A stretch of 33,001 nucleotides of DNA. Origin: Methanosarcinales archaeon Methan_01 (GTDB lineage: Archaea; Halobacteriota; Methanosarcinia; Methanotrichales; Methanotrichaceae). Both the position numbers and the translations under genes were made by a program. The first letter of the stretch is position 1; each line of letters starts with the position of its first letter. Positions 24,321 through 24,606 of the stretch are shown here, piece after piece. The stretch covers positions 68,042 to 101,042 of the forward strand of contig LUYE01000012.1 of NCBI GenBank assembly GCA_001602645.1, in the 5' to 3' direction. The notes beneath the pieces are model-generated. The model worked only from the letters and a program-made list of their open reading frames with translations, had not been told where the DNA came from and did no database searches.

Positions 24321-24432
24321 GGAAGTATCCTCTCTGATCTCTATTGCGGCTTGTCGTCCCTGACGACGGATATCGCTAGATGGAACACGGCGATATGAAC
24401 TTTTTGGAGGGTTTCAGGCGCCGGGGTTGGGA

Positions 24433-24463
24433 TTTTCCTGAGAGGGCTTTCCCGCCCCCCCAT
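24433..24463 (-). other. tRNA intron in the T-loop, about position 59/60
   Basis: A 31-nt block. Cutting AA^A before it and AA^T at its end leaves a perfect T-loop. TGGG at its start can pair with CCCA just after it, giving a 4-bp central helix between two 3-nt bulges, close to the archaeal bulge-helix-bulge rule. It contains an internal GGGC/GCCC hairpin. The outer helix is imperfect, and A-runs make the exact cut ambiguous by a base or two. Confidence 0.75.
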
Positions 24464-24511
24464 TTTGAACCCAAGCGTCCCAGAAGGGACAACAGGTCTC
24501 GAGCCTGCCGC

Positions 24512-24544
24512 GTTTGGACTCTTCAGACCCCTTGGAGACAGAAG
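24512..24544 (-). other. Insertion in the tRNA D-arm, probable intron
   Basis: A 33-nt block between ACTAAT and GCGGCAGG. Together with exon bases it forms a hairpin: GGACT with AGTCC, a 3-nt AAT bulge, then CTTC with GAAG. That looks bulge-helix-bulge-like, but cutting exactly there would leave 13 extra nt, so the splice sites, or a two-step removal, remain unclear. Confidence 0.6.
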
Positions 24545-24596
24545 ATTAGTCCGCTCTGCCACCCCGGCTCCGGAGCTTCTAGTTCAAACTTCTGGT

Positions 24597-24606
24597 TTAT
24601 ATCTGT
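24597..24606 (-). promoter_or_regulatory. TATA box of the tRNA-Ser gene
   Basis: Minus-strand AGATATAAAC, centred about 33 bp before the mature 5' end, predicts a precursor leader of a few bases. Confidence 0.55.

What the first reader, a model, noticed from the sequence alone, without database searches (positions are those of the whole stretch)
24512..24544. Second insertion, in the D-arm of the same tRNA gene
A 33-nt block must be removed to get a D-stem, so this tRNA would need two non-canonical splicing events and none at 37/38. Its hairpin (GGACT/AGTCC, AAT bulge, CTTC/GAAG) does not place the splice sites where the product requires, hinting at two-step splicing or a relaxed motif.
Basis: partly seen in the sequence, partly recalled or inferred. 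Interest (0 to 1): 0.72.

Follow-up and report, generated by a model that had tools for sequence, protein, structure and literature searches.

The report
Conserved D-arm intron in archaeal tRNA-Ser
A methane-making archaeon and its relatives carry a small removable insert in the D-arm of one serine tRNA gene (and, in its own family, a second insert in the T-loop); the insert has the normal archaeal splicing motif, so no relaxed or two-step splicing is needed, but the finished tRNA is predicted to keep a conserved A-C mismatch.

Summary
The window's only tRNA gene, tRNA-Ser(CGA) (24568..24419, minus strand), has a 33-nt D-arm insert and a 31-nt T-loop insert and none at 37/38. ARAGORN and Rfam miss it. 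The D insert is an archaeal intron kept in Methanotrichaceae, Methanococcoides and several other families of the phylum (68 distinct sequences). All fit one bulge-helix-bulge motif: central helix GGAC/GUYY, two 3-nt bulges, and an inner hairpin in which all five tested pairs show compensatory changes. Ordinary cutting inside these bulges places the splice between A21 and A22. Intron-less Ca. Methanoperedens genes encode exactly GGACTAACGCGG, so the 12-23 pair is A•C there; others encode A-U. The outer helix is weak, so a mildly relaxed motif is not excluded. The host endonuclease is predicted to be the narrow-specificity alpha'2 type without the Crenarchaea-specific loop. Reviews say such organisms carry introns only at 37/38 (Korarchaeum excepted), so this is a noteworthy new member of a known kind.

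The parts
24419..24568 (-). tRNA-Ser(CGA) gene, type II, with two introns (precursor 150 nt, predicted mature 86 nt)
   Evidence: covariance model R1 hit G000:C58:92460-92609; sequence dissection
24547..24568 (-). exon 1: positions 1-21, ends ...GGACTA (T20b, A21)
24514..24546 (-). D-arm intron, 33 nt, at 21/22 (in this sequence alone, 22/23 with intron 24545..24513 gives the same product; the AAT and AAG genes of relatives select 21/22)
   Evidence: BHB register across 68 distinct sequences; covariation; intron-less relatives
24549..24552 (-). 5' strand of the central 4-bp helix H (GGAC = G18 G19 A20 C20a)
   Evidence: helix 3, 100% of cells paired
24546..24548 (-). 5' bulge TAA, predicted cut TA^A
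24541..24545 (-). 5' strand of the inner helix h' (TCTTC)
   Evidence: 5 of 5 pairs with changes on both sides; isolated fold
24520..24524 (-). 3' strand of the inner helix h' (GAAGA)
24516..24519 (-). 3' strand of H (GTCC; GTTC or GTCT in relatives)
24513..24515 (-). 3' bulge AAA, predicted cut AA^A; the third A is A22 of the tRNA
24512..24512 (-). C23, opposite A12 (24557): conserved A-C mismatch in the predicted mature tRNA
   Evidence: 61 of 68 intron-bearing sequences A12/C23, 7 A12/U23
24464..24513 (-). exon 2: positions 22-59, with anticodon stem-loop and long variable arm
24499..24501 (-). anticodon CGA (serine, codon UCG)
24433..24463 (-). T-loop intron, 31 nt, at 59/60, with its own BHB
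24419..24432 (-). exon 3: U60 to discriminator G73
24597..24603 (-). TATA-box-like GATATAA, about 30 nt upstream of position 1 (possible promoter)
   Evidence: sequence inspection only

Best explanation
The block is a BHB-type archaeal tRNA intron inserted between A21 and A22 of tRNA-Ser(CGA). In the precursor, G18-G19-A20-C20a pairs with GUYY at the intron's 3' end (4-bp helix H), next to an intron hairpin, leaving two 3-nt bulges. The cell's single alpha'2-type EndA would cut between nucleotides 2 and 3 of each bulge, and tRNA ligase would join A21 to A22, giving ...GCAGAGCGGACUA|ACGCGGC.... An independent BHB intron at 59/60 is removed the same way. The mature D-stem is G10-C25, C11-G24 and A12/C23. 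Shown: conservation, covariation, motif register, the same product encoded by intron-less relatives, EndA type by sequence. Inferred: actual cleavage sites, ligation, persistence of A12/C23 in the mature RNA.
For: 68 distinct intron-bearing sequences all parse as GGAC, 3-nt bulge, hairpin, GUYY, 3-nt bulge, [C/U]GC; the nucleotides the model calls exonic (A21, A22) never vary, while those it calls intronic (5' bulge nt 3, 3' bulge nt 1-2) do. In the inner helix 5 of 5 pairs change on both sides, including UA to CG at the pair next to the bulge; for the whole structure, shuffled and slid controls do not reach the observed pairing and covariation. The isolated D-arm folds into exactly this structure. 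Intron-less Ca. Methanoperedens, f35, f19 and f9 genes encode GGACTAACGCGG, and L219-L221 match the predicted mature window tRNA over the first 47 nt. Only one Ser-CGA gene was found in the genome. EndA is one 352-aa ORF with two tRNA_int_endo domains, best matched by the A. fulgidus alpha'2 enzyme and lacking the 10-residue insert of A. pernix.
Against: No RNA data. The outer helix h is at most two G-C pairs (G15-C25, C16-G24) beside C23, or is replaced by the D-stem, so the 3' site may lie in an internal loop and not in a strict bulge. An alternative register pairing G18 with C23 (outer helix GCG/CGC, 3-bp H) cannot be excluded as an intermediate. A mature A12/C23 pair is unusual beside the C12-G23 of the genome's other serine tRNAs. 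The whole-precursor minimum-free-energy fold does not show the D-arm motif.
Confidence: 0.88

Rival explanations
1. Splicing occurs at the reader's boundaries (after AAU, before GC; 23/24) so that the product has an A12-U23 pair; the motif is then cut at shifted sites or in two steps.
For: Gives a 3-bp D-stem GCA/UGC; some intron-less relatives (f2, f27, f18) encode GGACTAATGCGG.
Against: The U it needs is paired in the inner helix and becomes C (UA to CG) in the AAG genes, whose product could then not carry U23. In the AAT genes the D-loop would be one nucleotide shorter. It ignores the exact bulge partition. Intron-less class-mates encode C23, not U23.
Confidence: 0.04
2. A refinement of the best explanation: same splice junction, but the 3' site is recognised as a relaxed HBh' motif because the outer helix is weak, with the rest of the pre-tRNA helping EndA.
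For: The isolated fold shows no outer helix. Full-length pre-tRNA is reported to allow the A. fulgidus alpha'2 EndA to remove a relaxed 37/38 intron (PMC6379350).
Against: The 4-bp H and two 3-nt bulges are strictly kept, as a strict enzyme would require; the enzyme has no Crenarchaea-specific loop.
Confidence: 0.3
3. The gene is a pseudogene and the inserts are decay.
For: Standard finders miss it.
Against: Exons nearly invariant across families; compensatory changes in acceptor, anticodon, variable and T stems and in both introns; it is the only Ser-CGA gene found in the genome.
Confidence: 0.01
4. C23 is edited to U in the precursor or mature tRNA, restoring A12-U23 (compatible with the best explanation for splicing).
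For: Position 23 switches between C and U opposite an invariant A12 among intron-bearing relatives; no G12-C23 was seen. C-to-U tRNA editing is known at position 8 in Methanopyrus (PMC3695527).
Against: No THUMP-deaminase fusion like the Methanopyrus editor was found. C12/A23 in family f10 suggests that a C-A combination at this pair is simply tolerated.
Confidence: 0.06

Closest known systems
Non-canonical BHB tRNA introns of Crenarchaeota, Thaumarchaeota and Nanoarchaeota (positions such as 20/21, 22/23, 59/60; PMC4090602)
   Same: Short introns outside 37/38 with a 4-bp central helix and 3-nt bulges; several per gene possible
   Different: Here with an alpha'2 EndA lacking the Crenarchaea-specific loop; two introns, none at 37/38; fixed across families; D site at 21/22
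Euryarchaeal canonical 37/38 BHB introns
   Same: Same motif and presumably the same enzyme
   Different: Position; in family f2 the same tRNA has a 37/38 insert instead and no D insert
Multiple-intron tRNAs of Methanopyrus and Methanothermobacter
   Same: Euryarchaeal tRNA genes with more than one intron
   Different: Methanopyrus has an (alpha-beta)2 enzyme; the listing that names them does not mention Methanotrichaceae (PMC4033280)
D-, anticodon- and T-arm introns of a Cyanidioschyzon merolae tRNA gene (PMC9602550)
   Same: Introns in D and T arms of one tRNA
   Different: Eukaryotic SEN complex; presumably independent origin

Membership tests
archaeal BHB tRNA intron (D-arm) | 4-bp central helix H | tested here: met
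   GGAC/GUYY paired in 100% of cells; all 68 sequences
archaeal BHB tRNA intron (D-arm) | two 3-nt bulges on opposite strands, cut between nt 2 and 3 | tested here: met
   3-nt segments present in all 68; exon/intron nucleotide partition fits; the cleavage itself was not testable
archaeal BHB tRNA intron (D-arm) | inner helix h' in the intron | tested here: met
   5 of 5 pairs with compensatory changes
archaeal BHB tRNA intron (D-arm) | outer helix h in the exons | tested here: inconclusive
   only C16-G24/G15-C25 or D-stem C11-G24/G10-C25 possible; the D-stem pairs are invariant and no outer helix forms in the isolated fold
archaeal BHB tRNA intron (D-arm) | removal restores a tRNA like intron-less relatives | tested here: met
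   first 47 nt identical to L219-L221
archaeal BHB tRNA intron (D-arm) | genome encodes EndA | tested here: met
archaeal BHB tRNA intron (D-arm) | excision in vivo or in vitro | not testable with these tools
   needs RNA sequencing or an enzyme assay
archaeal BHB tRNA intron (T-loop) | 4-bp H, two 3-nt bulges, inner helix h' | tested here: met
   three H pairs constant, the fourth (A57) pairs in 4 of 16 and not in 12 of 16
relaxed-motif intron needing a broad-specificity endonuclease | EndA with Crenarchaea-specific loop | tested here: not met
   10-residue insert of A. pernix 3p1z_B absent
C-to-U edited tRNA (Methanopyrus CDAT8 type) | THUMP-deaminase enzyme in the genome | tested here: not met
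   one THUMP match, not fused to a deaminase domain

The most novel reading that the evidence does not exclude
tRNA-Ser(CGA) of these archaea is edited from C to U at position 23, before or after splicing, restoring A12-U23, by an unidentified deaminase; editing would explain why position 23 drifts between C and U while A12 does not change in the intron-bearing genes.
Probability: 0.06. Interest if true: 0.75.

Novelty: new member of a known kind. Interest (0 to 1): 0.45.

Why it matters
Reviews state that Euryarchaeota with alpha4 or alpha'2 EndA have introns only at 37/38 (PMC4090602), with Korarchaeum as the only alpha'2 exception (PMC4033280). A fixed D-arm intron in several families, with a T-loop intron besides in Methanotrichaceae, contradicts this and suggests that the motif, not the position, is what a narrow enzyme requires. 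It gives a natural substrate for that test. Tools without BHB models (ARAGORN, Rfam) miss the only Ser-CGA gene here.

Tried and rejected
Pseudogene: rejected. The degenerate pattern search of the phylum gave mostly chance hits in G+C-rich genomes but revealed family f5; the covariance model was the better tool. The pattern search for Methanosarcina-like Ser-CGA was also noisy. ARAGORN called L083 tRNA-Pro although it looks like a Ser(UGA) with a 37/38 intron. Literature searches found no paper describing these introns; Marck & Grosjean 2003 and GtRNAdb were not available, so prior listing there cannot be excluded. The first BLAST query carried about 40 nt of the wrong strand at its start; harmless.

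Full report
The window lies in a genome (G000, 2.6 Mb, 98.95% complete) whose GGGP synthase gene beside the tRNA is 83-85% identical at protein level to named Methanothrix harundinacea and Methanothrix sp. records. The minus strand carries tRNA-Ser(CGA) at 24568..24419. ARAGORN and Rfam gathering thresholds find no tRNA in the window, and the genome's 43 Rfam tRNA hits contain no other Ser-CGA gene.

The same gene with both inserts stands upstream of the synthase gene in named Methanothrix, Methanosaeta and Methanotrichaceae records. In a covariance search of 200 genomes of the class, 151 match at E <= 1e-12; the listed family-f1 matches span 148-173 nt (both inserts), f3 and f4 about 114-124 nt and f34 103-109 nt (D insert only), f33 and f35 85-86 nt (no insert). 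Through named loci, f3-g16 is Methanococcoides and f33-g118 is Candidatus Methanoperedens. Outside the class, f5 and f29 also have the D insert.

All 68 distinct intron-bearing sequences parse as GGAC, three nucleotides, hairpin, GUYY, three nucleotides, then CGC or UGC (the first set). Bulges are TAA, AAT, AAA, CAA, AAG or TAT on the 5' side and ATA, AAA, CAA, TAA or ACA on the 3' side. The second 5' nucleotide and the third 3' nucleotide are always A, which are A21 and A22 of the tRNA; the nucleotides that fall to the intron vary. The parsing pattern required these two A's, but no intron-bearing sequence picked up by the script failed it. The exonic side of H is fixed by the tRNA, and its first two partners vary only between C and U. 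All five inner-helix pairs tested change on both sides. The isolated arm folds to this structure, though the whole precursor's minimum-energy fold does not.

Cutting between bulge nucleotides 2 and 3 gives GGACTA|ACGCGG for the window. In this sequence alone the junction could slide by one nucleotide without changing the product; the AAT and AAG genes settle it at 21/22. Intron-less genes of Ca. Methanoperedens, f35, f19 and f9 encode the same D-arm, and L219-L221 agree with the predicted mature tRNA over the first 47 nt. Intron-less f2, f27 and f18 encode U23 instead, as do seven intron-bearing genes of f4 and f3-g20.

The T-loop insert is a second BHB intron at 59/60 (24463..24433) with compensatory changes in all five inner-helix pairs tested. 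Its central helix has three constant pairs; the fourth (A57) pairs in only 4 of 16 sequences.

The endonuclease is one 352-residue reading frame with two tRNA_int_endo domains. Its best solved relatives are the A. fulgidus alpha'2 enzymes, and it lacks the ten-residue insert seen in the A. pernix enzyme. Papers describe alpha'2 enzymes as narrow, restricted to canonical BHB motifs (PMC4033280, PMC6379350, PMC12397907), which fits the strict motif kept here. The outer helix is weak, so a mildly relaxed 3' site remains possible; full-length pre-tRNA is reported to help the A. fulgidus enzyme with a relaxed intron (PMC6379350).

The A12/C23 pair could be a tolerated wobble-like pair or an editing site. 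No Methanopyrus-type THUMP-deaminase was found, and C12/A23 in f10 suggests tolerance. Only RNA sequencing can decide.

Noticed in passing
window 24433..24463 (-): T-loop intron at 59/60 in the same gene, present in the Methanotrichaceae genes examined and absent from the other families examined.
   Followed up: yes
L140-L142, L272, L273 (family f5): tRNA-Ser(CGA) with the 21/22 D intron and a further insert in the variable arm.
   Followed up: partly
L271 (G156, family f8): tRNA-Ser(UGA) that seems to have a D-arm intron with the same GGAC/GTCC helix plus a 37/38 insert.
   Followed up: no
L252-L254 versus L275, L278, L282 (genera g18, g19, probably Methanosarcina): The intron-bearing Ser-CGA gene is missing; an intron-less Ser-CGA gene with a D-arm like that of Ser-GGA is present, suggesting replacement by an anticodon switch.
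   Followed up: partly
L180, L181 (family f10): Intron-less Ser-CGA genes with C12 facing A23, another C-A combination at the same pair.
   Followed up: no
L127, L128 (family f2): Ser-CGA gene with no D insert but an insert at 37/38.
   Followed up: no
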